Positions 1-10,786 of a stretch of DNA of 10,786 bases are shown here, one piece after another. Position 1 is the first letter of the stretch. Each line of letters starts with the position of its first letter. The notes under the pieces were generated by a model, which did not search any database, had not been told where the DNA came from, and was given only the letters and a program-made list of their open reading frames with translations. Position numbers and translations under genes: made by a program. The stretch is from Firmicutes bacterium UBA4874 (lineage in GTDB: Bacteria; Bacillota; Clostridia; Caldicoprobacterales; DTU083), in NCBI GenBank assembly GCA_002399435.1, contig DHDO01000041.1, positions 1 to 10,786 of the forward strand. Reading direction: 5' to 3'.

Positions 1-804
1 TTCTTTTCCGGAAAAAATGCAAGGAACCTGGATGGGATCGGGGCTTTCCCATACACAGATACCCGAATCAGCAGAGTCCGGTATTCTGGCTTTGGTATCA
101 ATTTTTTTGTAATTCAGACGGTGTGTCTGATTGGTATCTTCGCACCATACCATATGCAGGAACCCGTCAGAATCCACTGTACCATTGAAATTGCTGCATC
201 TGTCCGTCGTCTGAAACAGAGTGGCAGGTCCCGACCAGATCTGTTGTATGTTGTCAAACCGGATGAGGCAGCATTGCGTGTGGTTCCGAAGGGTTTTGGT
301 ATAGACACACACAAGATTTCCACTCTGATCACTTGTGATCAGCTGAGGCATGGCATTTTGATCGGTGAGAAAATGCAGGAAAACCTTGCTTTTCCATCTG
401 CCATTTTCGGAATAGGAATGCACGAAGGATTCCTGTGCCCGTTTCAGGGAGTTTTCAATATAATATAACAGATGGACATGAGAAGCGTCGGATAGAACCG
501 AAAGCCAGGAGATATCCTCAAATCTGGAGGAAACACGGTATACCAAACGCTGGTACCACTGCTTCCCGTCCCATTCATAATAAATCAACTGCTTTGCCAG
601 GGTATAGGCGAGCAGGCAGATTCGATCCTGATTGTCCATGGTACTGCTGAAAAAGCGGACGGTTTTTCCGTCAATCGGTTTTTCTTCCGTCCATTGGCTG
701 TTTTCCCTGCAGGTATATTGTATCTTTTGCTGATCGGAAAGGGTGAAGAACCATTGCTTGCCCAGGGAATCTTCCATATAATAAGGGAAGCCGATGTTTG
801 TCAT
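1..804 (-). CDS. Propeller-like repeat protein, unknown function (3' end beyond window)
   Basis: Reading leftward from ATG at 804, the frame stays open for 268 codons to the window edge with no stop, so the C-terminus lies outside. A strong site, AAGGAGGAA, ends 6 bases before this ATG. Another in-frame ATG at 828 lies upstream of that site and is less likely. There is no signal peptide. Four degenerate repeats are visible (about residues 54-83, 102-137, 154-190 and 208-236). Each has a Ser/Asp turn, a hydrophobic beta strand (RICLLAY, HVHLLYY, NLVCVY, FLHMVW), then a second strand; the first three close with a Trp-containing segment (GKQW, NGRW, QQIW), the fourth does not. A period near 50 residues with these patterns suggests beta-propeller blades. 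I recognise no catalytic motif and assign no function. It is divergent from the coat-like gene at 989, and the two may share regulation. That this is a real gene is fairly certain; the fold is inferred. Confidence 0.75.
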   Translation of the reverse strand, partial: MTNIGFPYYMEDSLGKQWFFTLSDQQKIQYTCRENSQWTEEKPIDGKTVRFFSSTMDNQDRICLLAYTLAKQLIYYEWDGKQWYQRLVYRVSSRFEDISWLSVLSDASHVHLLYYIENSLKRAQESFVHSYSENGRWKSKVFLHFLTDQNAMPQLITSDQSGNLVCVYTKTLRNHTQCCLIRFDNIQQIWSGPATLFQTTDRCSNFNGTVDSDGFLHMVWCEDTNQTHRLNYKKIDTKARIPDSADSGICVWESPDPIQVPCIFSGKE

Positions 805-863
805 GGCAATTTCCTCCTTATCCTCCATATTGCATTACGATTTCAAAGCATTCATCTGATATA

Positions 864-892
864 AGCTTATGAAAGGCCGGTATAAAATATCA
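864..892 (-). promoter_or_regulatory. Candidate sporulation (sigma-E-like) promoter for the propeller-like gene
   Basis: Read on the minus strand, TGATATT (886-892) is followed after 14 bases by CATAAGCT (864-871). This resembles the sigma-E consensus of Bacillus (kmATATT, about 14 bases, CATACAHT), with 6 of 7 and 6 of 8 positions agreeing. A start near 857 would leave a leader of about 50 bases before the ATG at 804. Matches of this quality can occur by chance in AT-rich spacers, so this is only suggestive. Confidence 0.3.
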
Positions 893-904
893 CTTCCCAA
901 CCAG

Positions 905-944
905 GCACAATCAAATTGACATTCACATATCATGGCTAATGAGA
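905..944 (+). promoter_or_regulatory. Candidate promoter region for the coat-like gene
   Basis: Two readings are possible. CACA (905-908) followed after 17 bases by CATATCATG (926-934) resembles a sigma-K promoter (mACm, 16-17 bases, CATANNNTA) but misses the last A. Alternatively, TTGACA (916-921) is a perfect sigma-A -35 box but lacks a good -10 at the right distance (ATGAGA with 17 bases, TAATGA with 15). Either reading would start transcription near 940-950, downstream of the ATG at 932, which supports translation from 989. Confidence 0.25.
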
Positions 945-988
945 GAAGGGAGTTCTCTCATATTCCATTAGGAAAAGGGGGTTTATTG

Positions 989-1762
989 ATGTCTTTTTAT
1001 TCCTACAAGAATGAAGGGAATCCTCGTTGCCCGGGAAGGATCGGATTTGACGGATTGAAGAACATACTTGAGAAGGTCTGCGTTCAGGTGAACAAAGTCT
1101 ATGACTCCTGTTTACAGCAGGAGACAATAAACGATGTGAGGATTGTCCTGAAGGAAGTCTGCAAGAGTCATACGAATTTCATGCCTCCGCTGACGTTTGT
1201 CAGCTGCCGGAGCACGTCGGTAAAGGGAAAACTGGTTGGAACCCGTATTGACAGACTGCAGGACCGCCCCAACTTCGCCCGTATCCGTACCAAAGTGGAG
1301 ATACCGATTGAAGTGGTATTTGAAGACTGTGAAGGACGGCAGGGCACAGGTACAGCCATTATCACCATACCCAAGGATGTTGTTCTCTATGTGCCGGATG
1401 AGTCTGTGATCCCGTTCCAACTGGAGAGCATTGTAAATGCAATCTGTGTATCCGGGCGGTTTATACCGGGTGATACCTTCCGATTTGATGTCGATGTTTG
1501 TCTGACCATTATACTCAAGATTATTGCCAAGGTGGAGCTGTTGATTCCCGCATTTGGCTTCTGTGAAATTCCTCCCTGCGAAGAGTTCTCGGAATCCGTA
1601 TGCGACGATATCTTCAATCTGCCTCTGTTCCCTCCTCAGCTGGAAGATGTTTGTGAGGACAGGAACAAACCCAGGAATGAACCCAGGAACGAACCCGGGT
1701 GCGATCCGGGATGCGCTCCCAAAAGAAGCCTCAGCATTCAGAAAGAGGATAAGAAAGAATGA
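989..1762 (+). CDS. Cys-containing coat-like hypothetical protein
   Basis: The protein has 257 residues from ATG 989. This start is preferred because AAAAGGGGG lies 7 bases upstream, whereas the in-frame ATG at 932 has no ribosome site. It opens with a short Cys-containing head (CPGRIG), then KVCVQVNKVYDSC, a central part rich in alternating hydrophobic beta-strand segments (for example VEIPIEVVFEDCEG), and a VELLIPAFGFCEIPPC segment near residues 188-203. The tail is hydrophilic with tetrapeptide repeats and ends in basic and acidic residues. There is no signal peptide or membrane span. The first part (KVCVQVNKVYD) recalls the KVCIQ-type openings of clostridial spore envelope proteins such as the DUF3794 group, and spaced cysteines suit a crosslinked coat. 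That resemblance is from memory, so the function stays open. It is monocistronic, with a terminator 61 bases after the stop. Confidence 0.8.
   Translation: MSFYSYKNEGNPRCPGRIGFDGLKNILEKVCVQVNKVYDSCLQQETINDVRIVLKEVCKSHTNFMPPLTFVSCRSTSVKGKLVGTRIDRLQDRPNFARIRTKVEIPIEVVFEDCEGRQGTGTAIITIPKDVVLYVPDESVIPFQLESIVNAICVSGRFIPGDTFRFDVDVCLTIILKIIAKVELLIPAFGFCEIPPCEEFSESVCDDIFNLPLFPPQLEDVCEDRNKPRNEPRNEPGCDPGCAPKRSLSIQKEDKKE
1668..1715 (+). repeat. Four imperfect 12-bp tandem repeats encoding a tetrapeptide repeat
   Basis: The copies AACCCAGGAATG, AACCCAGGAACG, AACCCGGGTGCG and ATCCGGGATGCG follow each other without gaps. In the gene frame they encode KPRN-EPRN-EPGC-DPGC-AP, a tail of X-Pro-(Arg/Gly)-(Asn/Cys) units near the C-terminus. 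The unit is a multiple of three, so copy number could change without breaking the frame. Confidence 0.8.
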
Positions 1763-1822
1763 AGGCAGGCTGAAGTGGGAAATATGGCAGGAATTTCAGC
1801 AAAGGAAAATTGAGGAATTCCG

Positions 1823-1861
1823 AAAAAGGGCATGCTATTTCAATAGCTGCTCTTTTTTTTT
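1823..1861 (+). terminator. Intrinsic terminator after the coat-like gene
   Basis: AAAAAGGGCA (1823-1832) pairs with TGCTCTTTTT (1848-1857, one G-U pair). Inside it, GCTAT pairs with ATAGC around a TTCA loop, with one bulged T. The stem runs directly into a T tract ending at 1861. It separates the coat-like gene from the van regulatory genes. Confidence 0.88.
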
Positions 1862-1928
1862 GTGAGGTGAGCGGAACGCCGGATACGCCATGCAAAGGCA
1901 GTGTCGTCCGGGTGGAAGGGGAAGGAGC

Positions 1929-1957
1929 TTGTCAGGATGCCGGTATCCGGATATAAT
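1929..1957 (+). promoter_or_regulatory. Sigma-A promoter of vanRS
   Basis: TTGTCA (1929-1934), a 17-base spacer and a perfect TATAAT (1952-1957). The predicted start is near 1964, giving a leader of about 80 bases before the vanR GTG. The close match to consensus suggests that the two-component genes are made at a basal level without needing an activator. Confidence 0.75.
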
Positions 1958-1965
1958 GGATGATG

Positions 1966-1979
1966 GCCTTTGTTAAGGC
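1966..1979 (+). promoter_or_regulatory. Candidate VanR autoregulatory site or hairpin at the vanRS transcription start
   Basis: GCCTT-TGTT-AAGGC is an inverted repeat at the predicted transcription start. Its core CCTTTGTTAAGG (1967-1978) matches 11 of 12 bases of CCTTTCTTAAGG (3881-3892) in the control region before vanG. A shared element at both promoters of one regulon suggests binding by VanR. Here only one copy is present, without 11-bp phased partners, and its position downstream of the -10 box fits repression better than activation. A simple RNA hairpin is the alternative. Confidence 0.4.
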
Positions 1980-2044
1980 AGGATGTGGTCTGTCTGACGC
2001 GGGCGGCAGGGGGGAAAGAGCAAAAAGGTAAGGAGTAAGGAACC

Positions 2045-2743
2045 GTGAAAGCAAATATACTGGTCGTGGATGATGAACAATCCATTGTGGATTTGGTTGA
2101 AGTCTACCTGAAAAACGAAGACTACAGGGTTTTCAAGTTCTATAACGGACAGGACGCCTTGAATTGTGTGGAAAGGGAATCCGTGGATCTGGCAATCCTG
2201 GACGTGATGCTTCCGGACGGAGATGGGTTTTCCATCTGCCGGAAGATCCGGGAGAAGCATAATTTCCCGGTCATTATGCTGACTGCGAAGGACGAGGAGA
2301 TTGACAAAATCAACGGTCTGATGCTGGGTGCGGATGATTATATCACTAAACCCTTTCAGCCTTTGGAACTGGTTGCCAGGGTAAAGGCACAATTACGGCG
2401 GTCCCGGCAATACAACACATCCAAACCGGCCCGGGAGGACCACACCATTGTGTTTTCCGGTCTGGTGCTGGATCGGGACAAGCATACCTGTATGCTGAAT
2501 GAACGGATGCTTTCCCTGACTCCCATTGAGTTCTCTGTTTTATGGGAACTGGCGTCCAGCCGGGGGCGGGTGGTCAGTGCGGAGGAATTGTTCCGCAAAG
2601 TCTGGGGAGGCAAGTATTTTTCCAGCAGTAACAATACCGTCATGGTACATATCCGGCATCTGCGCGAGAAAATGCACGACAGTGCAGAACATCCGAAATA
2701 CATCAAAACGGTATGGGGGGTGGGATATAAAATTGAAGGATAA
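2045..2743 (+). CDS. vanR: VanR-type response regulator (OmpR/PhoB family)
   Basis: The protein has 232 residues, the usual VanR length, and starts at GTG with AAGGAG 9 bases upstream. The receiver domain (about 1-120) has the acidic pair D9-D10, phosphoacceptor D53 in LAILDVMLP, T80 and K102 in DDYITKPF. The winged-helix DNA-binding domain (about 132-232) has SLTPIEFSVL, SSNNTVMVHIRHLREKM and the ending KYIKTVWGVGYKI. These stretches, with the spacing between them, are typical of VanR proteins of Enterococcus and clostridial van clusters. When phosphorylated by VanS, VanR is known to activate the resistance promoter, and the phased heptamers at 3863-3891 are the likely target. The stop lies 11 bases inside vanS, and both genes are read from the promoter at 1929. 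It is intact, with all key residues present. Confidence 0.95.
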   Translation: MKANILVVDDEQSIVDLVEVYLKNEDYRVFKFYNGQDALNCVERESVDLAILDVMLPDGDGFSICRKIREKHNFPVIMLTAKDEEIDKINGLMLGADDYITKPFQPLELVARVKAQLRRSRQYNTSKPAREDHTIVFSGLVLDRDKHTCMLNERMLSLTPIEFSVLWELASSRGRVVSAEELFRKVWGGKYFSSSNNTVMVHIRHLREKMHDSAEHPKYIKTVWGVGYKIEG

Positions 2744-3842
2744 GCCCTTCCAGTCAACATTTACGCGAAAAATGATTCTTCGGTGCGTCCGCATGGGACT
2801 GCTTGTCTCGCTGGGGTACGTGCTCCTTGTGGTTGCCGCATTTTTTCTCATTCACAAGGGGATCATCTGGCAGCCATCTCCGCTTTATGACTTTCTTAAT
2901 ACCATGGAACCGTTTGTTGTTGTGATCGTGATTCCGATAGGATGGCTGATTCTGATTCTGGCTGTCATTTATCTGCAATGGAAACGAACCGTAGGATACA
3001 TTGAACGGGTCGTGACGGCAAGCGCAGACCTGGTACAGCCGGACAAGGAATTTGTCCGGCTGCCGGAGGAGCTCCGGGAGGTGGAGGACAGGATGAACCA
3101 GATCAAGCGTACCGCGCTGAAGAATGAACAGGAGGCAAAGGAGGCGGAGCGGCGCAAGAACGATCTGGTGGTCAACATTGCCCATGATATCCGGACGCCG
3201 CTTTCTTCCGTCATTGGATATTTGAGTCTTCTGGATGAAGCGCCGGATATGCCGGAGAAGCAGCGTAGAAAATACACCGGCATTACGCTGGAAAAAGCAT
3301 ATCGGCTGGAACAGCTGCTGAATGAGTTTTTTGAAATCACACGGTTCAATGTCACCTCCATTGTGCTGAATATGGGGGAGATCCATCTGGCCTTCATGCT
3401 GCAGCAAATGGCAGACGAATTCTATCCCATGCTGTCCCCGCAGAACAAAAAAGCGGTGGTGCAGGCACCGGAGGATCTGATTTTGTGGGGGGATGCGGAC
3501 AAGCTGTCCCGGGTGTTCAACAATATTTTGAAAAACGCCATTGCCTATAGCTATGAGGGGAGCACCATTGTCATCACCGCCGTGGAACAGGAAGGAAAGG
3601 TAATCATTCAGTTTACCAATCAGGGGGATCCGATTCCGGAGCAAAAACTTTCCACCATTTTTGAACGATTTTTCCGGCTGGATGTGTCCCGCTCCTCCAG
3701 GACAGGAGGGACAGGACTGGGACTGGCCATCGCCAGGGAAATTGTGACTGCCCACAAGGGCACCATTACTGCGGAAAGCGACGAGACCAAAACCAGATTC
3801 ACCGTTGTTCTGCCAAACCGCAGGAGAAAGCAAGGAGCCTGA
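2733..3842 (+). CDS. vanS: VanS-type sensor histidine kinase
   Basis: I place the start at TTG 2733, giving 369 residues. It overlaps the vanR end by 11 bases and follows a G-rich ribosome site (2715-2724) by 8 bases. Enterococcal vanS has a similar overlapping arrangement with an IKLK-type N-terminus. The in-frame ATG at 2772 has no ribosome site, and an ATG at 2526 lies deep inside vanR. Two membrane spans (about 15-41 and 61-82) flank an outside loop of only about 20 residues. A cytoplasmic linker (84-140) leads to the H box NIAHDIRTPLSS, with phospho-accepting H151 and the HDxxT phosphatase motif. Then come YLSLLDEAPDMP, N box (RVFNNILKNA, about 260-269), the ERFFRLD segment and the ATP-lid motif TGGTGLGLAI (about 324-333). 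It should phosphorylate VanR when glycopeptide or the resulting wall damage is sensed, and dephosphorylate it otherwise. The signal bound cannot be read from the sequence. Confidence 0.93.
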   Translation: MKDKPFQSTFTRKMILRCVRMGLLVSLGYVLLVVAAFFLIHKGIIWQPSPLYDFLNTMEPFVVVIVIPIGWLILILAVIYLQWKRTVGYIERVVTASADLVQPDKEFVRLPEELREVEDRMNQIKRTALKNEQEAKEAERRKNDLVVNIAHDIRTPLSSVIGYLSLLDEAPDMPEKQRRKYTGITLEKAYRLEQLLNEFFEITRFNVTSIVLNMGEIHLAFMLQQMADEFYPMLSPQNKKAVVQAPEDLILWGDADKLSRVFNNILKNAIAYSYEGSTIVITAVEQEGKVIIQFTNQGDPIPEQKLSTIFERFFRLDVSRSSRTGGTGLGLAIAREIVTAHKGTITAESDETKTRFTVVLPNRRRKQGA

Positions 3843-3862
3843 AGAATTGGATCTTTGCAAAA

Positions 3863-3891
3863 TCCTAATCCTTTCGTAAGCCTTTCTTAAG
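3863..3891 (+). promoter_or_regulatory. Three 11-bp-phased heptamers, probable VanR operator
   Basis: TCCTAAT (3863-3869), TCGTAAG (3874-3880) and TCTTAAG (3885-3891) are spaced exactly 11 bp apart. The last two lie in the longer direct repeats CCTTTCGTAAG and CCTTTCTTAAG. Heptamers repeating once per helical turn are the classic target of OmpR/PhoB-family dimers, where the site takes the place of the -35 box. The position between vanS and vanG and the related copy at 1967 make VanR the natural ligand. Binding itself is inferred. Confidence 0.65.
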
Positions 3892-3894
3892 GTT

Positions 3895-3940
3895 TTGACA
3901 AGTTAATATTTCCATCTGGTCTGTCTGTTTTTGATAAAAT
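3895..3940 (+). promoter_or_regulatory. Candidate promoter of vanG-vanXY-vanT
   Basis: Possible elements are TTGACA (3895-3900), TAATAT (3904-3909) and TGATAAAAT (3932-3940). TTGACA has no good -10 box 16-18 bp downstream. If TAATAT is the -10 box, the heptamer array occupies the -35 region, as in PhoB-type activation. If TGATAAAAT is used, it forms an extended -10 box with a poor -35, again fitting a promoter that needs an activator. The sequence alone does not decide between them. The resulting leader would be about 70-105 bases. Confidence 0.5.
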
Positions 3941-3954
3941 GAAAGCATGGAAGG

Positions 3955-3976
3955 GCAGGTCATTTATTTTGCCTGC
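3955..3976 (+). other. Weak inverted repeat in the vanG leader
   Basis: GCAGG (3955-3959) can pair with CCTGC (3972-3976) around a 12-base AT-rich loop, extendable by two G-U pairs. There is no T tract, so it is not an intrinsic terminator. It may only stabilise the 5' end of the mRNA, or be chance. Confidence 0.2.
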
Positions 3977-4018
3977 TTGAAAATAAGGAACGATCAGAGG
4001 CAAAAGGAGTCATTTTAA

Positions 4019-5065
4019 ATGAAGAAGACAGTCGCTGTTTTATTTGGCGGAAATTCCACGGAATATGAAGTTTCACTGCAGTCCGCCGGTTCGGTCATAG
4101 AGAATCTGGATCCGGAGAAATATCATATCCTGCTGCTTGGCATCACCCGTCAGGGAAAGTGGATGAAATATGATGGCGGAGTGGAGCCAATCCGGCAAGA
4201 TACCTGGTGGCAGCATTCCTCCTGTGTCCCGGTTATCTTTTTACCAGGCTGGGAAAACCATGGAATAGTGGTGCAGGAGGAAGGAAAATGCAAAAGGATC
4301 CCTGTCGATGTGGCGTTTCCTGTCCTGCACGGAAAAAACGGGGAGGATGGCACAGTGCAGGGTCTGCTGAAGCTGATGGGGATTCCCTGTGTAGGCTGCG
4401 GCATTCTCAGCTCGGCTCTCTGTATGGACAAGGACATGGCTCACCGGCTGGTTCAGCTGGCAGGGATCAGGACGCCGGATTCCGTTGTACTGCATTCCCA
4501 GCTGCCGGATGCGGAGCTGCGGGAGCAGACATCGGGGCTTCCTTATCCTGTTTTTGTAAAGCCGGCCAATTCCGGTTCTTCTTTCGGCATTACCCGTGTT
4601 TCCGATGCGGATGAGCTGTCGGATGCGGTGAAAAAAGCCTTTCAACATGACGGTAAAGTGGTCGTTGAAGAAGCCGTTCCCGGCTTTGAAGTTGGCTGTG
4701 CCGTTCTGGGCACGGATCCCCTTACCTTCGGGGAAGTCGATGAGATCGAGCTGTCCCGGGGATTTTTTGATTATACCGAAAAGTATACACTGAAAACTTC
4801 AAAAATCCATATGCCTGCCAGAATTGATGCGGATACGGCGAAGCGGGTGAAACAGGCAGCGGCGGTAGTTTACGGTACTTTGGGCTGTTCCGGGTTTGCA
4901 AGGGTTGATTTTTTCCTGACTCCCCAAAAGGAAATTGTGTTCAATGAAGTAAACACAATTCCCGGTTTTACCACACACAGCCGATATCCCAGTATGCTGA
5001 AAGGGATTGGTATAACATTTGAACAGATGGTGGATGAGATGATCCGATTGGCGGTGGAGTCATGA
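4019..5065 (+). CDS. vanG: D-alanine--D-serine ligase, VanG type
   Basis: The cytoplasmic ATP-grasp ligase has 348 residues and starts at ATG with AAAAGGAG 9 bases upstream. It joins D-Ala to D-Ser with ATP, giving the dipeptide used for glycopeptide-insensitive wall precursors. Visible landmarks are GGNSTEYEVSLQS (10-22, with E15 at the catalytic Glu position of Ddl), FPVLHGKNGEDGT (100-112), KPANSGSSFGIT (181-192), GCAVLG, the omega loop FFDYTEKYTLKTSKI (249-263), and NEVNTIPGFTTHSRYP (309-324). The omega loop keeps Lys-Tyr (255-256) as in D-Ala- and D-Ser-adding ligases and lacks the VanA/VanB D-lactate pattern. R322 replaces the Leu or Met usual in Ddl. Together with vanT and vanXY next door and no vanH lactate dehydrogenase, this fixes the D-Ser type rather than a housekeeping Ddl. 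The TGA stop overlaps the vanXY ATG (ATGA). Confidence 0.95.
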   Translation: MKKTVAVLFGGNSTEYEVSLQSAGSVIENLDPEKYHILLLGITRQGKWMKYDGGVEPIRQDTWWQHSSCVPVIFLPGWENHGIVVQEEGKCKRIPVDVAFPVLHGKNGEDGTVQGLLKLMGIPCVGCGILSSALCMDKDMAHRLVQLAGIRTPDSVVLHSQLPDAELREQTSGLPYPVFVKPANSGSSFGITRVSDADELSDAVKKAFQHDGKVVVEEAVPGFEVGCAVLGTDPLTFGEVDEIELSRGFFDYTEKYTLKTSKIHMPARIDADTAKRVKQAAAVVYGTLGCSGFARVDFFLTPQKEIVFNEVNTIPGFTTHSRYPSMLKGIGITFEQMVDEMIRLAVES

Positions 5066-5895
5066 AAACATTTCAATTTGGTGAGAGTGACGTTTCAAGG
5101 GGAAACCTGATTCTGGTCAACCCGTCCCATCCCCTTCCGGACAAAAGGAAAATGGATCGTTTGACATTCCTGGAGTCTTCCTTTTTCTGTAATGGGTTGT
5201 TCGTATCCGATGGGGAAAAGATCTGTGCGACTGCAGAGTCCGACAGGGCCGGCTCCGTCGCCATGGAAAGCCAGGCGGCAGAAATGCTCCTTAAGGTGAT
5301 GATGCAATTGAATGCCGGAGACAAAATCCTTCCGGTCAGCGGCTACCGTACTTTACAGGAGCAACAGACGATTTATGCAGATTCCCTGCGGGAAAACGGC
5401 GCAGAATATACCGGCAAATATGTCGCCGTTCCGGGATGCAGCGAGCACCAAACGGGATTGGCTATCGATCTTGCTGAGAACCGGGAGGAAATCGACTTTA
5501 TCTGCCCGGATTTTCCGGATGCCGGGATCTGCAGACAATTCCGGCAATTGTCCACTGCCTATGGCTTTATTGAGCGGTATCCTGCCGGCAGGGAACAGAT
5601 TACGCAGATCGCCTGCGAGCCATGGCATTTTCGCTATGTGGGATATCCTCATTCGGAGATCATAAAGGAAATGAATGATACATTGGAAGAGTATATCCAA
5701 TATCTGAAATGTTTTTGTCCGGATCATCCTTTGGGATACCAATGTGGCCGGTATGCATATGAGATTTTCCATGTCCCGGTTCCACAGGATCCAGGGCAGA
5801 AAGCAGTCGCGGAGATTCCGGATCAGGTCTCCTGTCAGGTTTCCGGCAACAACGAGGACGGCGTTGTAATAACCTTACAGAGGAATGTGTTATGA
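5062..5895 (+). CDS. vanXY: VanXY bifunctional D,D-dipeptidase/D,D-carboxypeptidase
   Basis: A zinc peptidase of family M15 with 277 residues, it overlaps vanG by 4 bases, so translation is probably coupled. VanXY enzymes hydrolyse D-Ala-D-Ala and trim the last D-Ala from normal pentapeptide precursors, leaving those ending in D-Ser. The zinc site is visible: H129 and D136 in SEHQTGLAIDLA, H189 in EPWHFRYVG, with E186 as the likely catalytic base. R96 in VSGYRTLQEQQTIY belongs to the conserved substrate-binding region. No signal peptide or membrane anchor is present, as expected for the cytoplasmic VanXY class and unlike membrane-bound VanY. The C-terminal extension after residue 205 (EEYIQYLK, and VSGNNEDGVVIT near 260-271) resembles VanXY of the VanG cluster as I recall it. 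All catalytic residues are present, so it looks functional. Confidence 0.93.
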   Translation: MKTFQFGESDVSRGNLILVNPSHPLPDKRKMDRLTFLESSFFCNGLFVSDGEKICATAESDRAGSVAMESQAAEMLLKVMMQLNAGDKILPVSGYRTLQEQQTIYADSLRENGAEYTGKYVAVPGCSEHQTGLAIDLAENREEIDFICPDFPDAGICRQFRQLSTAYGFIERYPAGREQITQIACEPWHFRYVGYPHSEIIKEMNDTLEEYIQYLKCFCPDHPLGYQCGRYAYEIFHVPVPQDPGQKAVAEIPDQVSCQVSGNNEDGVVITLQRNVL

Positions 5896-8192
5896 CGGAT
5901 ACAGGAAGCGGATGCGTCATGGATGCAGTATACCGTGCGGAGAACAGAATGAATCCGGGCAAAGTGGAATATGCCGGTATTGACTGGTTCCGGCTGATTG
6001 CCGCTTTCCTCGTTGTTTCCATTCACACTTCACCACTGGCGGACTGGAATCAGACTGCCGATTTTCTTCTCACGCGCATTCTGGCCCGTGTGGCTGTTCC
6101 CTTTTTTCTTATGACTTCCGGATTTTTTCTGTACTCAAAGGAGGAAGACGGGGCGCTGCCCTTTGGCAGATTGGCTGCGTTCCTGAAAAAAACGGCGGCT
6201 TTATATGCGATAGCGATCTTGCTTTATCTGCCGTTTGATATCTATAACGGGACCATACAGGAATGGAAATATCTGCCGAATCTTCTGAAGGACATTGTTT
6301 TTAACGGTACCCTTTATCATTTGTGGTATCTCCCTGCAGCGATCCTCGGTGCCTGCATTGTCTGGCTGCTGCTGAAAAAGGGGAACGCCGGCCGGGCAGG
6401 CTTTGTTTGCCTGGTTCTGTATCTCATCGGATTGTTCGGAGACAGCTACTATGGCATATCCGAAAAGATCCCGTTCCTTGAGGCGGCTTATCGGAATTTG
6501 TTCCGGCTTTTCGATTATACGCGCAACGGTCTGTTCTATACCCCCATTTTCTTTTTGATGGGTGCACTGTTCGCAAGGCAGGCAAACAGAAGGGAGGAAA
6601 CACATCTGTTCCGGCAGATTTCAGGGAAGAAGTGCATCGCCGGGCTTGCATTGTCCCTTTCCCTGATGATTGTGGAAGGATATCTGCTGCATCGTTTTCA
6701 TCTTCAGCGGCACGACAGTATGTACTTTTTCCTTCTGCCCACCATGTTTTTCCTGTTCCCCTGTCTTCTTTTTCCTTTTAGCGGAAAGGATAACCGGTCA
6801 CTGCGAAGCCTCTCCATGATCATTTATCTGGTTCATCCTGCGGTTCTTGTTGCCATTCGCGGATTTGCAAAGGCAGTGGGTCTTGAGAGCCTGTTGATCG
6901 AAAACAGCTTTCTTCATTTTCTGACCGTCGCTCTGGGCTCTTTTGCCGCCGCTGCCCTGCTGATCCGTATCGGAAATCGCAGACACACATTCACGGGTGT
7001 CGGTCTCATATACGGAAATCCGGAACGGCTTCCGCAGACAGGCGGGCATCCAACGCCTTCCGACAAGGGACACCGGGACCGGGCATGGGCGGAGATCCAT
7101 CTGCCCAGTCTTCGCTGGAATGTGGAAGCACTGCAGAAAATGCTTCCTGCCGGCTGCCGGATCATGGCGGTGGTAAAGGCAAATGCATACGGGCATGGAG
7201 CAGTGCAGGTATCGACTTATCTGAACCGCATCGGCGTGAGGTGCTTTGCGGTCGCCACTATTGACGAAGGAATCAATCTTCGCAGACATGGAATCAGCGG
7301 TGAGATTCTGATCCTTGGCTATACCCCCGTGGAAAGAGCTCCTGAGTTATATCGTTACCGGCTGTCCCAGACTGTGGCGGACACGAAGCATGCCATGGAG
7401 CTGGATTGCTTTGGGAAACCGATATCGGTGCACATCAAAGTGAACACCGGTATGAACCGTCTGGGGGAGAGCTTCCGGCATGCAGAAGAAATTGCTTCTG
7501 TCTTTGCCTGTAAGAATCTTAGCATTGAAGGCATTTTTACGCACCTTTGCGTATCCGACAGCCGGAAAGAATCCGATATCGATTTTACCAACCTTCAGAT
7601 TCGCTGTTTCTATCAGCTCCTGTACCGATTGAAATCAGAAGGGATACCTATTCCCAGGGTGCATGTGCAGAGCAGCTATGGTGTGCTCAATTATCCGTCA
7701 CTTTCCTGTGACTATGCCCGAATCGGGATTGCGCTTTACGGTGTATTGAGCACGCCGGATCCCCGGACAAAGTGCCCTTTGGAATTAAAGCCGGTTCTGG
7801 CTCTGAAATCCAGGGTGACTCTGGTAAGGAATATTGGTCCCGGGGAAGGGGTCAGCTATGGCAGGAAATTTATTGCACAGAAAAAAACGGTCGTCGCCGT
7901 AATTTCCATTGGATATGCAGATGGTTATCCGCGGGATCTTTCCGTCGGGAAAGGACAGGTATTGATTCATGGAAAGCGCGCATCGATTATCGGCCGTATT
8001 TGCATGGATCAGCTTATGGCGGATGTGACGGGAATCCCGGATGTGAAAAGGGGAGATGTGGTCACGCTGATCGGAAAGGATGGCATGGAGAAGATTACCG
8101 CGGAGGAAGTGGCGGAAAACGCCGGAACGATTACCAACGAATTGCTCAGTCGATTGGGAGATCGCCCGGAACGGATTTTCCTTGATTCCTAA
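5892..8192 (+). CDS. vanT: VanT membrane-bound serine racemase
   Basis: The protein has 766 residues in two parts and overlaps vanXY by 4 bases (ATGA), with AGAGGA upstream. Residues about 28-362 are an acyltransferase-3-like membrane domain with around ten hydrophobic spans. It opens with GIDWFRLIAAFLVVSIHTSP, where R34 and H45 keep the R-x10-H pattern of that family. In VanT this domain is linked to L-Ser supply. After a hydrophilic linker (363-397) comes a PLP alanine-racemase-fold domain (398-766): AVVKANAYGHG with K429 as the PLP lysine, NTGMNRLG, and GYADGYPR with catalytic Y675. N749 in GTITNE lies where alanine racemase of Geobacillus stearothermophilus has Tyr354. Asn at this position is the known VanT feature that favours serine. 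It therefore supplies D-Ser to VanG. No frame break is seen. A short run of tandem repeats begins at the stop codon. Confidence 0.94.
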   Translation: MTDTGSGCVMDAVYRAENRMNPGKVEYAGIDWFRLIAAFLVVSIHTSPLADWNQTADFLLTRILARVAVPFFLMTSGFFLYSKEEDGALPFGRLAAFLKKTAALYAIAILLYLPFDIYNGTIQEWKYLPNLLKDIVFNGTLYHLWYLPAAILGACIVWLLLKKGNAGRAGFVCLVLYLIGLFGDSYYGISEKIPFLEAAYRNLFRLFDYTRNGLFYTPIFFLMGALFARQANRREETHLFRQISGKKCIAGLALSLSLMIVEGYLLHRFHLQRHDSMYFFLLPTMFFLFPCLLFPFSGKDNRSLRSLSMIIYLVHPAVLVAIRGFAKAVGLESLLIENSFLHFLTVALGSFAAAALLIRIGNRRHTFTGVGLIYGNPERLPQTGGHPTPSDKGHRDRAWAEIHLPSLRWNVEALQKMLPAGCRIMAVVKANAYGHGAVQVSTYLNRIGVRCFAVATIDEGINLRRHGISGEILILGYTPVERAPELYRYRLSQTVADTKHAMELDCFGKPISVHIKVNTGMNRLGESFRHAEEIASVFACKNLSIEGIFTHLCVSDSRKESDIDFTNLQIRCFYQLLYRLKSEGIPIPRVHVQSSYGVLNYPSLSCDYARIGIALYGVLSTPDPRTKCPLELKPVLALKSRVTLVRNIGPGEGVSYGRKFIAQKKTVVAVISIGYADGYPRDLSVGKGQVLIHGKRASIIGRICMDQLMADVTGIPDVKRGDVVTLIGKDGMEKITAEEVAENAGTITNELLSRLGDRPERIFLDS

Positions 8193-8231
8193 CTTTGGAT
8201 TCCTAACCTTGGTTGATTCGTAACCTTGGTT
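8184..8231 (+). repeat. Three imperfect tandem repeats across the vanT stop codon
   Basis: GATTCCTAACTTTG (8184-8197), GATTCCTAACCTTGGTT (8198-8214) and GATTCGTAACCTTGGTT (8215-8231). Each copy holds a TAA. The first is the vanT stop, and the other two fall in the other two frames, so the array closes all three frames. Confidence 0.7.
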
Positions 8232-8232
8232 C

Positions 8233-8264
8233 AAAAAAGGACATCCCGGAAAAGGGATGGCCTT
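8233..8264 (-). terminator. Intrinsic terminator of feoAB
   Basis: On the minus strand, AAGG plus CATCCC pair with GGGATG plus CCTT around a six-base TTTTCC loop, with one mismatch between the two stem parts. The stem is followed by six T (the complement of 8233-8238). It lies 60 bases past the feoAB stop. It has no T tract in the + direction, so it would end vanT transcripts poorly. Confidence 0.8.
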
Positions 8265-8278
8265 AAGGTGTATTCCTG

Positions 8279-8306
8279 CTTCCGGAGTAGCCGGATTATC
8301 CGGAAG
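8279..8306. other. Inverted repeat between vanT and feoAB
   Basis: CTTCCGG (8279-8285) pairs with CCGGAAG (8300-8306) around 14 bases that themselves contain CCGGA-TTA-TCCGG, so two alternative hairpins are possible. No T tract follows on either strand. It might protect the 3' end of the feoAB mRNA or help end vanT transcripts. I can say no more. Confidence 0.35.
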
Positions 8307-8323
8307 ACCGGATTCTGTTGCCA

Positions 8324-10690
8324 TCATACCATTATGAAAAGGATGCCGATTCCCCGGATGACCAGGGCACATAGCCAGGCGATGACACATTGGCCAACCG
8401 CAATTGCAGCTGCCCATTTCCCGCCCAGTTCCCTCCTGATGGAGGTAATGGCTGCGACACAGGGACTGTACAGCAGACAGAACACAAGCAGTGCGGCTGC
8501 AGATACCGGGGAAAGCACGGACAGGAGGACTTCCTTGCTTCCAAACAATACCGTAAGGGTGGATACCACGCTTTCCTTTGCCATAAAACCGGCAATCAGC
8601 GATGTCACAATGCGCCAGTCCCCGAAACCCAGAGGGCGGAAAATGGGGGACAGCAGACCTGCCAGTGCAGCCAGAATGCTGGCCTTTGAACCCGTAACGA
8701 CATTCAGCCGAAAGTCGAATGTCTGCAGAAGCCATACCACGATGGTCGCGACAAAAATAACGGTAAAGGCTCTTTCCAGAAAATCTTTTGCCTTATCCCA
8801 GAGAAGACGTACCACATTTTTGCCACCTGGCATACGATAATTTGGCAATTCCATTACAAAAGGCACGGCTTCTCCCTGAAACACCGTATTTTTGGTCAGC
8901 AGGGCGACAAGGACGGCAACAAGAATTCCGAGAAAATACAGGCTGGTCATGACAAGGCCGCTGTACTCCGGGAAAAAAGTGTTTGTAAAAAATCCGTAGA
9001 TCGGAAGCTTTGCCGTACAACTCATAAAAGGAGTCAGCAGAATGGTCATTTTGCGATCCCGCTCGGAAGGAAGGGTGCGGCTGGCCATGACCCCTGGAAC
9101 CGTACATCCGAATCCGAGCAGCATTGGCACAATGCTTCTGCCGGAAAGTCCGATTTTTCGAAGCAATTTGTCCATTACGAAGGCGACCCGGGCCATATAG
9201 CCGCTGTCTTCCAGGATGGACAGGAAGAAAAACAGGGTGACGATAATTGGGATAAAGCTCAGGACGCTGCCAACCCCGTTGAAAATCCCATTAATAATGA
9301 GAGAATGCAGGACATTGTTGATATGCCCGGCTGTGAGAGCCGAGTCCACTGCTCCGGAGATCCAGTCAATGCCGGATTCCAGAAGGTTTTGCAAAAACGA
9401 GCCGATCACATTGAACGTAAGCCAGAATATCAGCGCCATGATTCCGACAAAGGCAGGGATTGCGGTATATTTGCCGGTGAGAAAGGTATCGATCTTCCGG
9501 CTTCTTTTATGCTCCTTGCTTTCTTTCGGCTTTACCACCGTTTTGTCACATAATGCCTGGATGAAGGAGAACCGCATATCTGCAATTGCTGCCGCATGGT
9601 CGAGCCCGCCTTCCTTTTCCATCTGAAGGATAATATGATCCAGGGTCTCTTTCTCATTTTGCGTCAGATTCAGGGATTCACGAACTGTGGCATCTCCCTC
9701 AACCAGTTTCGTTGCGGCGAATCGCAGCGGGATTCCGGCAGCTTCTGCGTGATCCTCTATCAGGTGCATAATGCTGTGCAATGCCCTGTGAACCGCTCCG
9801 CCGTTTTTTTTGCTGTCGCAAAAGTCGATTCTGCCTGGCCGCTCCTGGTATTTTGCAATATGGAGCGCATGCTTTATCAGCTCATCGACACCTTCATTCC
9901 TGGATGCAGATATGGGGACAACGGGAATGCCGAGGGTTTCCTCCATCTCGTTGATATCGATGGTGCCGCCGTTGCCCCGTACTTCATCCATCATGTTCAG
10001 GGCCAGCACAATTGGTACATTCAGCTCCATCAGCTGGAGGGTAAGATACAGGTTGCGTTCAATATTGGTGGCATCCACAATGTTTATGATTCCGGTTGGT
10101 TTCTGATCGATAATGAATTGTCTGGATATCATTTCTTCATTGCTGTATGGTGATAGGGAATAGATCCCCGGCAGATCGGTTACGAGGGTTCCCGGATGAC
10201 CTTTGATGGGTCCGTCTTTCTGATCAACGGTAACGCCTGGAAAATTGCCGACGTGTTGGTTGGCTCCGGTTAACTGGTTGAACAGGGTGGTTTTCCCTGA
10301 ATTCTGATTTCCTGCCAGGGCAAAGGTGAGCTTTGTACCCTTTGGCAATGGATTTTCCTTTGTTTTTACGTGATATTTCCCACTTTCCCCCAGCCCGGGG
10401 TGCACGATTCGGTTTCTCTCCAGTGTCGTTTCATGCTTTACCATCCGGGGTTTCTTCTGTTCCAAATTTTTTTCCGTTATCCCTATTTTCTGGGCATCAG
10501 AAAGCCGCAGGGTAAGTTCATAGCCATGAATCAATAATTCCATTGGATCGCCCATTGGTGCATATTTCATAAGCGTCACTTCTGCACCCGGTATGATTCC
10601 CATATCCAGGAAATGCTGCCTGAGTGCACCTTTCGCGCCTACTGAGGTGATCACTGCTGTTTTTCCGAGCTCCAGATCCCTTAATGTCAT
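8324..10690 (-). CDS. feoB: FeoA-FeoB fusion, ferrous iron transporter
   Basis: The protein has 788 residues and starts at the ATG at 10690. A GAAAG lies 6 bases before it and a better AAAGGA 12 bases before it. Residues 1-75 are a FeoA-type SH3-like domain (FLDMGIIPGAEVTL). A linker (76-118) joins it to a FeoB G domain with G1 GNQNSGKTT (127-135), T154 in the switch, G3 DLPG (172-175), G4 NMMD (232-235) and G5 SAS (261-263). A helical stretch (about 290-400) precedes the membrane part (about 405-787), which has the two gate-like repeats: GFGCTVPG with C529, and YSPCVAA with C744. The protein brings Fe2+ into the cytoplasm using nucleotide hydrolysis. FeoA normally is a separate small protein; fused forms occur in some Bacillota. 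It faces vanT and is not part of the van operon. It appears complete. Confidence 0.94.
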   Translation of the reverse strand: MTLRDLELGKTAVITSVGAKGALRQHFLDMGIIPGAEVTLMKYAPMGDPMELLIHGYELTLRLSDAQKIGITEKNLEQKKPRMVKHETTLERNRIVHPGLGESGKYHVKTKENPLPKGTKLTFALAGNQNSGKTTLFNQLTGANQHVGNFPGVTVDQKDGPIKGHPGTLVTDLPGIYSLSPYSNEEMISRQFIIDQKPTGIINIVDATNIERNLYLTLQLMELNVPIVLALNMMDEVRGNGGTIDINEMEETLGIPVVPISASRNEGVDELIKHALHIAKYQERPGRIDFCDSKKNGGAVHRALHSIMHLIEDHAEAAGIPLRFAATKLVEGDATVRESLNLTQNEKETLDHIILQMEKEGGLDHAAAIADMRFSFIQALCDKTVVKPKESKEHKRSRKIDTFLTGKYTAIPAFVGIMALIFWLTFNVIGSFLQNLLESGIDWISGAVDSALTAGHINNVLHSLIINGIFNGVGSVLSFIPIIVTLFFFLSILEDSGYMARVAFVMDKLLRKIGLSGRSIVPMLLGFGCTVPGVMASRTLPSERDRKMTILLTPFMSCTAKLPIYGFFTNTFFPEYSGLVMTSLYFLGILVAVLVALLTKNTVFQGEAVPFVMELPNYRMPGGKNVVRLLWDKAKDFLERAFTVIFVATIVVWLLQTFDFRLNVVTGSKASILAALAGLLSPIFRPLGFGDWRIVTSLIAGFMAKESVVSTLTVLFGSKEVLLSVLSPVSAAALLVFCLLYSPCVAAITSIRRELGGKWAAAIAVGQCVIAWLCALVIRGIGILFIMV

Positions 10691-10786
10691 AGATCTTTCA
10701 AGTCCTTTCTCTCAGGCTTCTGCCAATATCCTCTTCCTTTTTCCAATAAAGAATCCTTTCAAAAGGTTCCTTATAAGTTAGCAACA
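10691..10786 (-). promoter_or_regulatory. Upstream region of feoAB with possible operator half-site
   Basis: On the minus strand a TATAAG (complement of 10770-10775) could be a -10 box, with its -35 beyond the window. Next to it, + strand AAGTTAGC (10775-10782) resembles half of a DtxR/IdeR-type iron box (AGGTTAGC), and CCTTT-CA-AAAGG (10755-10766) is a short inverted repeat. The window stops before a full site could be seen, so regulation by iron is only a guess. Confidence 0.2.

What the first reader, a model, noticed from the sequence alone, without database searches (positions are those of the whole stretch)
1929..8192. Complete, compact VanG-type D-Ala-D-Ser resistance cluster in an apparently non-mobile setting
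vanR, vanS, vanG, vanXY and vanT are all present with intact key residues, while the vanU, vanY and vanW genes of enterococcal VanG elements are absent. The order matches the cluster known from C. difficile. Flanks are ordinary-looking genes with no transposase or integrase, so this may be an intrinsic, perhaps silent or inducible, set in a commensal or environmental clostridium, and a possible relative of the mobile forms.
Basis: partly seen in the sequence, partly recalled or inferred. Interest (0 to 1): 0.7.

Follow-up and report, generated by a model that had tools for sequence, protein, structure and literature searches.

The report
VanG resistance cluster with hairpin-nested promoter
An unnamed relative of gut clostridia carries a complete gene set of the kind that rebuilds the cell wall to evade vancomycin, and its switch seems to belong to a family in which the start signal of the resistance genes sits in the loop of a stop-signal-like hairpin.

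Summary
vanR, vanS, vanG, vanXY and vanT are intact at 2045-8192. VanG groups apart from the 13 Ddl ligases of its family; dN/dS is 0.085-0.208 against the sister species, so this is no dead relic. That fits an old gain beside a tRNA gene. VanG clusters are common (13 of 291 class genomes), so the cluster itself is ordinary.

The new part is the vanS-vanG gap. In many divergent vanG loci, and in vanA, the VanR promoter's -10 lies in the loop of a terminator-like hairpin. Its arms covary (11 of 13 pairs), wobbles favour the sense RNA (GT:AC 67:8), and VanR boxes lie in exact 11-bp register in 38 of 46 loci. Held-out loci agreed. I read it as an insulator: read-through RNA folds and stops, RNA started in the loop cannot fold. 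The window's own hairpin is eroded (z -0.31), its sister's is sound (z -4.71). No transcript was measured.

The parts
1..828 (-). flanking gene with a weak BNR_4 match (below cut-off), incomplete at the contig end
   Evidence: conserved neighbour of the coat-like gene in the sister and relatives
932..1762 (+). coat-like flanking gene conserved in the family (no Pfam family)
   Evidence: 79-97% identical in 12 of 12 other family genomes; no Pfam match
1929..1957 (+). putative vanRS promoter TTGTCA-17-TATAAT
   Evidence: 11 of 12 consensus bases; promoter-like matches not enriched in the region
2045..2743 (+). vanR, response regulator
   Evidence: NF033117 393.3 bits over cut-off 350
2733..3842 (+). 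vanS, sensor kinase, two hydrophobic segments, TTG start inferred
   Evidence: NF033091 383.3 bits, cut-off 400; H, N and G boxes
3872..3904 (+). three 11-bp direct repeats, VanR-box-like
   Evidence: best match to the published 12-bp box only 9 of 12, at -61 from the -10
3917..3962 (+). eroded inverted repeat (arms 3917-3933 and 3946-3962) around the putative -10
   Evidence: score 23, best of 8 shuffles 25; z -0.31; sister copy z -4.71
3935..3940 (+). putative -10 (TAAAAT) of the vanG-XY-T promoter, in the loop
   Evidence: aligned with loop hexamers of other vanG loci
4019..5065 (+). vanG, D-Ala-D-Ser ligase
   Evidence: NF000091 553.8 bits over cut-off 495; 4fu0 451.6 bits; tree
5062..5895 (+). 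vanXY, D,D-peptidase, divergent
   Evidence: VanXY_G 226.4 bits, below cut-off 500; 4f78 motifs aligned
5892..8192 (+). vanT, membrane acyltransferase-like domain fused to serine racemase
   Evidence: NF033131 569.9 bits over cut-off 460; 4ecl 451.2 bits
8324..10690 (-). fused feoAB; lies between the van cluster and tRNA-Leu in the sister
   Evidence: 94% in the sister, 40% or less outside the genus

Best explanation
This is a probably functional, vertically kept VanG-type D-Ala-D-Ser cluster. VanT makes D-Ser, VanG joins it to D-Ala, VanXY removes D-Ala-D-Ala ends, and VanRS switches the operon on (function inferred from family). vanRS is probably read from its own sigma-70-like promoter. vanG-XY-T is read from a VanR-activated promoter whose -10 lies in the apical loop of a terminator-like hairpin just after vanS. 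RNA that reads through from vanRS carries both arms, folds and stops; RNA that starts at the loop begins in the 3' arm and cannot fold it. The nest thus makes the resistance genes depend on VanR-driven initiation. Shown by sequence: the hairpin, its covariation, the loop -10 and the VanR-box register in many vanG loci, and hairpin, loop hexamer and register in one vanA operon. Inferred: start site, termination and insulation. In this species the hairpin is eroded, so its insulation may be weak.
For: Cluster. Nest, discovery set (48 of 83 loci had a readable vanS end nearby, 34 had none, 1 was masked): the best hairpin after vanS reaches score 22 in 31 of 48; the loop holds TANNNT in 24 of 31 and TGNTANNNT in 20 of 31, against 63 and 11 of 293 other terminator-like hairpins of the same loci (Fisher 7.6e-10 and 1.3e-16, related loci counted apart). 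Six of those 11 controls lie upstream of vanG and are of the same kind. Covariation (31 sequences): 88.5% of cells paired, 11 of 13 pairs with double changes, score 0.693 against 0.366 +/- 0.024 shuffled and 0.140-0.249 slid. Own arms score 31.1 on average, swapped arms 16.0; 34 of 46 loci beat every swap, 15 of 25 in a non-redundant subset. G.T against A.C in stems 67:8 in 28 loci and 37:2 in 16 non-redundant. The published VanR box lies exactly 50, 61, 72 or 83 bases before the hexamer in 38 of 46 loci, 35 of them with 10 or more of 12 bases. Held-out set: 16 new loci, hairpin in 14, TANNNT loop in 12, extended -10 in 8, best box in register in 7. vanA: boxes 11/12 at -50 and 10/12 at -83. 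Control: of 26 other histidine-kinase loci of the two genomes (30 of 62 matches gave loci, 2 were cut, 2 are vanS), 6 have such a hairpin and none of these the loop motif. PMC10965585 (passages): vanA revertants with a short deletion in the vanH promoter region express constitutively.
Against: The window's own hairpin is no better than chance (z -0.31; 15 of 39 arm swaps do as well) and its best VanR box has only 9 of 12 bases. 17 of 48 discovery loci have no hairpin of that strength, and 7 of 31 hairpins lack the hexamer. vanB shows no nest: read by eye, its hairpin lies just after vanS with TATAAC in the loop and box-like repeats follow it. The 46 register loci were picked by eye for a loop hexamer, and score and motif definitions were set after viewing the discovery set. 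Among the 12 held-out loop hexamers two (L173, L177) look like chance. Other terminators also favour G.T over A.C, less strongly (409:296). PMC10965585 explains its revertants by alternative promoters. No transcript data.
Confidence: 0.7

Rival explanations
1. An ordinary vanRS terminator and an ordinary vanG promoter overlap only because the gap is short; the nest has no function.
For: Gaps are short (129-300 bp in many loci); vanB seems to have terminator and promoter side by side (by eye).
Against: The hexamer lies in the loop far more often than in other hairpins, in register with the VanR boxes, while the arms change but stay paired; the pattern recurs in held-out loci and in vanA.
Confidence: 0.15
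2. The inverted repeat works as DNA: a palindromic operator or a cruciform that shows the -10 in a loop.
For: Long, near-perfect symmetry centred on the -10 in some loci.
Against: Arm sequences differ between loci, unlike one operator; G.T far exceeds A.C (67:8; 37:2), which DNA symmetry would not favour; T-runs of 4 or more at the end in 23 of 31.
Confidence: 0.1
3. The hairpin is a leader attenuator inside the vanG mRNA, with a start site upstream of it.
For: In the C. difficile locus the 3' arm can pair with sequence further downstream.
Against: VanR-box spacing to the loop hexamer fits the E. faecalis vanG footprint and its TACAAT -10 (PMC4405338, passages; the comparison is inferred).
Confidence: 0.08
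4. The cluster is a silent relic on its way out.
For: Eroded hairpin in this species; C. difficile clusters are called cryptic in PMC4405338 (passage).
Against: No stops, and dN/dS 0.085-0.208 for the five genes between the two species.
Confidence: 0.07

Closest known systems
C. difficile vanG-like cluster (L077)
   Same: vanR-vanS-vanG-vanXY-vanT order; hairpin with TATAAT at the loop, z -10.8
   Different: VanG only 56% identical; its hairpin is near-perfect while that of the window is eroded
Enterococcus faecalis BM4518 vanG operon (PMC4405338, passages)
   Same: VanG/VanT kind of chemistry; VanR-activated resistance promoter with three direct repeats and -10 TACAAT; a separate regulatory promoter that VanR does not bind
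vanA operon of Tn1546 type (pVEF3, L172)
   Same: hairpin between vanS and vanH with TAGACT at the loop and VanR boxes at -50 and -83
   Different: D-Ala-D-Lac chemistry, plasmid setting
vanB operon (pMG2200, L168)
   Same: VanRS control; hairpin with T-run just after vanS
   Different: no nest evident by eye; D-Ala-D-Lac chemistry

Membership tests
VanG-type glycopeptide resistance cluster | D-Ala-D-Ser ligase of the VanG family, apart from housekeeping Ddl | tested here: met
   (553.8 over 495); tree of 60 of 100 proteins with 13 Ddl in one clade at 100/100
VanG-type glycopeptide resistance cluster | membrane serine racemase VanT of the G type | tested here: met
   VanT-G catalytic domain 569.9 over 460 plus acyltransferase domain
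VanG-type glycopeptide resistance cluster | bifunctional VanXY | tested here: inconclusive
   catalytic motifs align with 4f78 but the score is under both VanXY cut-offs
VanG-type glycopeptide resistance cluster | VanR/VanS pair upstream | tested here: met
   VanR over cut-off; VanS just under (383.3 of 400) but best of its 76 matches
VanG-type glycopeptide resistance cluster | inducible precursors ending in D-Ala-D-Ser, raised glycopeptide MIC | not testable with these tools
   needs culture and precursor analysis
Hairpin-nested VanR promoter (this report) | -10 hexamer in the loop position, downstream of VanR-box-like 11-bp repeats | tested here: inconclusive
   hexamer and three repeats in place, but the best box has only 9 of 12 bases
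Hairpin-nested VanR promoter (this report) | stable hairpin around the -10 | tested here: not met
   window z -0.31; met in the sister species (z -4.71). The window holds a decayed copy at best
Integrative element at a tRNA gene | tRNA 3' end repeated at the far junction, integrase present | tested here: not met
   no repeat above shuffles; no integrase among scanned ORFs of window and sister locus

The most novel reading that the evidence does not exclude
VanRS-controlled resistance operons of the vanG and vanA kinds share an unrecognised control device: a promoter nested in the loop of the regulator operon's own terminator hairpin, kept by compensatory change, which blocks read-through and lets only VanR-started transcripts pass. 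It would also offer a second reading of the published vanA revertants.
Probability: 0.6. Interest if true: 0.75.

Novelty: new variant of a known kind. Interest (0 to 1): 0.55.

Why it matters
The cluster adds one more chromosomal VanG set to a large clostridial reservoir (13 of 291 class genomes; 36 of 299 of one family, chosen because it was known to hold VanG). The control element is the more useful result. It gives a testable reason why van clusters stay off without VanR, links vanG and vanA regulation by one layout, and gives a sequence mark for the true start of vanG operons in genomes without transcript data.

Tried and rejected
Mobile element: the VanG query found no relative in viral contigs; of 22 phage records with a match the 10 listed reach 40.1% at most; of 488 plasmid records none reaches 60%, the best 57.4%. 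att repeat at the tRNA junction: none. Base composition: the van genes (GC 0.496-0.515) and feoAB (0.499) are 2-5 points above the sampled DNA of the own genome (0.460-0.479 in two flanking genes, 12 kb of contig C13 and 45 kb of kinase loci) but like lon and polA of the sister (0.517, 0.497), so this neither shows nor excludes a foreign origin. Known RNA family: no Rfam match in the window or at the hairpins of seven other loci (one tRNA elsewhere in L091). First hairpin scans used other scorings and regions and were exploratory; share one definition. The first histidine-kinase control misread the strand of several loci and was redone; L138 and L139 there carry the loop motif in a weaker hairpin (score 18). 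In one search, of 35 loci with vanG, 16 had a vanS end and were new, 2 were already seen and 17 had no vanS end in the held stretch. Literature on the nest: the listings show no paper that names it; passages of PMC2965389 discuss in general how terminators and palindromic operators may turn into one another through new start sites. Older subscription papers on the vanA promoter were not held, so an earlier description cannot be excluded.
Full report
Observation. The window is a whole contig (C77) of a 2.57 Mb, 113-contig genome that is 92% complete. The five van genes are open and in the stated order. Curated models call VanG, VanR and the VanT-G catalytic domain above cut-off; VanS is just under, and VanXY is well under its cut-offs. 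Alignments to 4fu0, 4f78 and 4ecl keep the ligase, peptidase and racemase motifs. The asparagine in TITNELLSR is, from memory of the VanT literature, the residue that favours serine; no paper I read confirms it. vanG, vanXY and vanT overlap by ATGA and are probably coupled in translation.

Type and selection. In a tree of 60 proteins (of 100 collected) the 13 Ddl of the family form one clade (100/100), and the window VanG sits with its sister, then with Lachnospiraceae and Syntrophomonas MAG proteins at 74%. The tree warns of long branches and of joins between them (L170, L171, L168); I do not rely on those rows. The genome has a separate Ddl of 366 aa. Between the two species of the genus dN/dS is 0.085 (vanR), 0.168 (vanS), 0.126 (vanG), 0.160 (vanXY) and 0.208 (vanT), so all five are under purifying selection.

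Setting. The sister genome G010 carries nearly the whole window (3-10741) in one 89% identical block. VanG at that level is in 2 of 13 family genomes, both of the own genus; at E 1e-110 VanG is in 3 of 30 genomes of the order. The coat-like gene left of the cluster is found in 13 of 13 family genomes, 79-97% identical in the 12 others. In 5 of the 11 genomes of other genera (L123, L126, L127, L131, L133) it is followed by tRNA-Leu(CAA) and polA, 1.1-2.6 kb away; L131 is the clearest. In L128 and L130 more genes lie before the tRNA, L124 and L129 have other neighbours and no tRNA there, and L125 and L132 end too soon. Names such as lon, polA and coaE were read by eye from the sequences, not from models. 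In G010 the van cluster and feoAB fill that place, over 9.5 kb, the 3' end of the tRNA facing them. The 94% feoAB homologue is also confined to the own genus; outside it matches reach 40%. This is best read as one or two old gains beside a tRNA gene. No att repeat or integrase remains, and loss in the other genera is not excluded.

Prevalence. At E 1e-125, 13 of 291 genomes drawn evenly from the class have VanG, own genus included; at 1e-120, 36 of 299 of one family that was chosen for holding it. Many of the 80 best named loci carry the same five genes in the same order.

The control region. Between vanS and vanG many loci have a long inverted repeat with a TACAAT-like hexamer at its loop. 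With one scoring rule, the best hairpin in 300 nt after vanS reaches score 22 in 31 of 48 loci; 24 of 31 have TANNNT and 20 of 31 TGNTANNNT at the loop, against 63 and 11 of 293 other terminator-like hairpins of the same loci. The arms covary, own arms fit better than swapped arms, and the wobble-like cells in stems are G.T rather than A.C by 67:8 and 37:2 after removing similar arms; other terminators show 409:296. That strand bias points to the sense RNA.

Link to VanR. The 12-bp VanR box is published for the E. faecalis vanG resistance promoter (PMC4405338, passages read). In 46 loci picked by eye for a loop hexamer, the best match starts exactly 50, 61, 72 or 83 bases before the hexamer in 38, with 10 or more of 12 bases in 35 of these. 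The steps are one 11-bp turn apart. Of the others, three are one base off and five matched best in the other orientation. This places the activator on one face of the helix relative to the loop hexamer, which marks the hexamer as the -10. The published footprint (-100 to -56 from the start site) agrees with boxes at -83 to -61 from the -10 if the -10 begins near -12 (inference).

Replication and limits. In 16 unseen loci with vanS, 14 have such a hairpin, 12 a loop hexamer, 8 an extended -10, and 7 a best VanR box in register. Two of the 12 (L173, L177) look like chance. One vanA operon has the same layout; one vanB operon, read by eye, does not. Of 28 readable histidine-kinase loci of the two genomes, only the sister's own vanS has the loop motif in a hairpin of score 22 or more; the window's own vanS does not reach it.

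The window's copy. In this species the hairpin has lost Watson-Crick pairs and folds no better than shuffles, while the sister's copy is sound. The 11-bp repeats and -10 remain. I expect weaker insulation here; this is inference.

Published support. PMC10965585 (abstract and passages) describes a vancomycin-selected E. faecium revertant with a short deletion in the vanH promoter region and constitutive expression, attributed there to alternative promoters. By eye the deletion overlaps the vanA hairpin. Loss of an insulator is a second reading; the text holds neither 'stem' nor 'secondary structure', nor 'hairpin' or 'terminator' (listing).

Verdict. An ordinary VanG cluster by content, old and kept in its genus, with a decayed copy of a control element that seems widespread and, as far as the searches of held papers show, undescribed.

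Noticed in passing
L055, L058, L060, L065, L073, L083, L087, L088, L089, L094: vanG is followed by vanT with no vanXY match at the threshold used; these clusters may use another D,D-peptidase.
   Followed up: no
L022, L046, L054, L062, L068, L070, L088, L089: gaps of 757-1657 bp between vanS and vanG, perhaps an extra gene; in L046, L054, L068, L088 and L089 the nested hairpin lies far upstream of vanG, near vanS.
   Followed up: partly
L073, L043: a ribosome-binding-like AAGGAGG or AAGGAAG lies in the 3' arm of the hairpin just before the vanG start, so read-through RNA would also hide it.
   Followed up: no
L077 around 7886-7955: in C. difficile the 3' arm can pair with downstream sequence, so an mRNA started in the loop might carry its own 5' hairpin.
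   Followed up: no
L125, L126: tRNA-Leu(CAA) beside the coat-like gene is inverted in genus g9 relative to the other relatives.
   Followed up: no
L081, L088: MAGs titled Gastranaerophilales and Muribaculaceae carry vanG loci; a binning error seems likely.
   Followed up: no
window 8180-8231: short tandem repeat TTGATTCCTAACCTTGG, about three copies, at the end of vanT and after it.
   Followed up: no
L153, L156: repeated ACCAGTATATAATG-type units after a histidine kinase gene.
   Followed up: no
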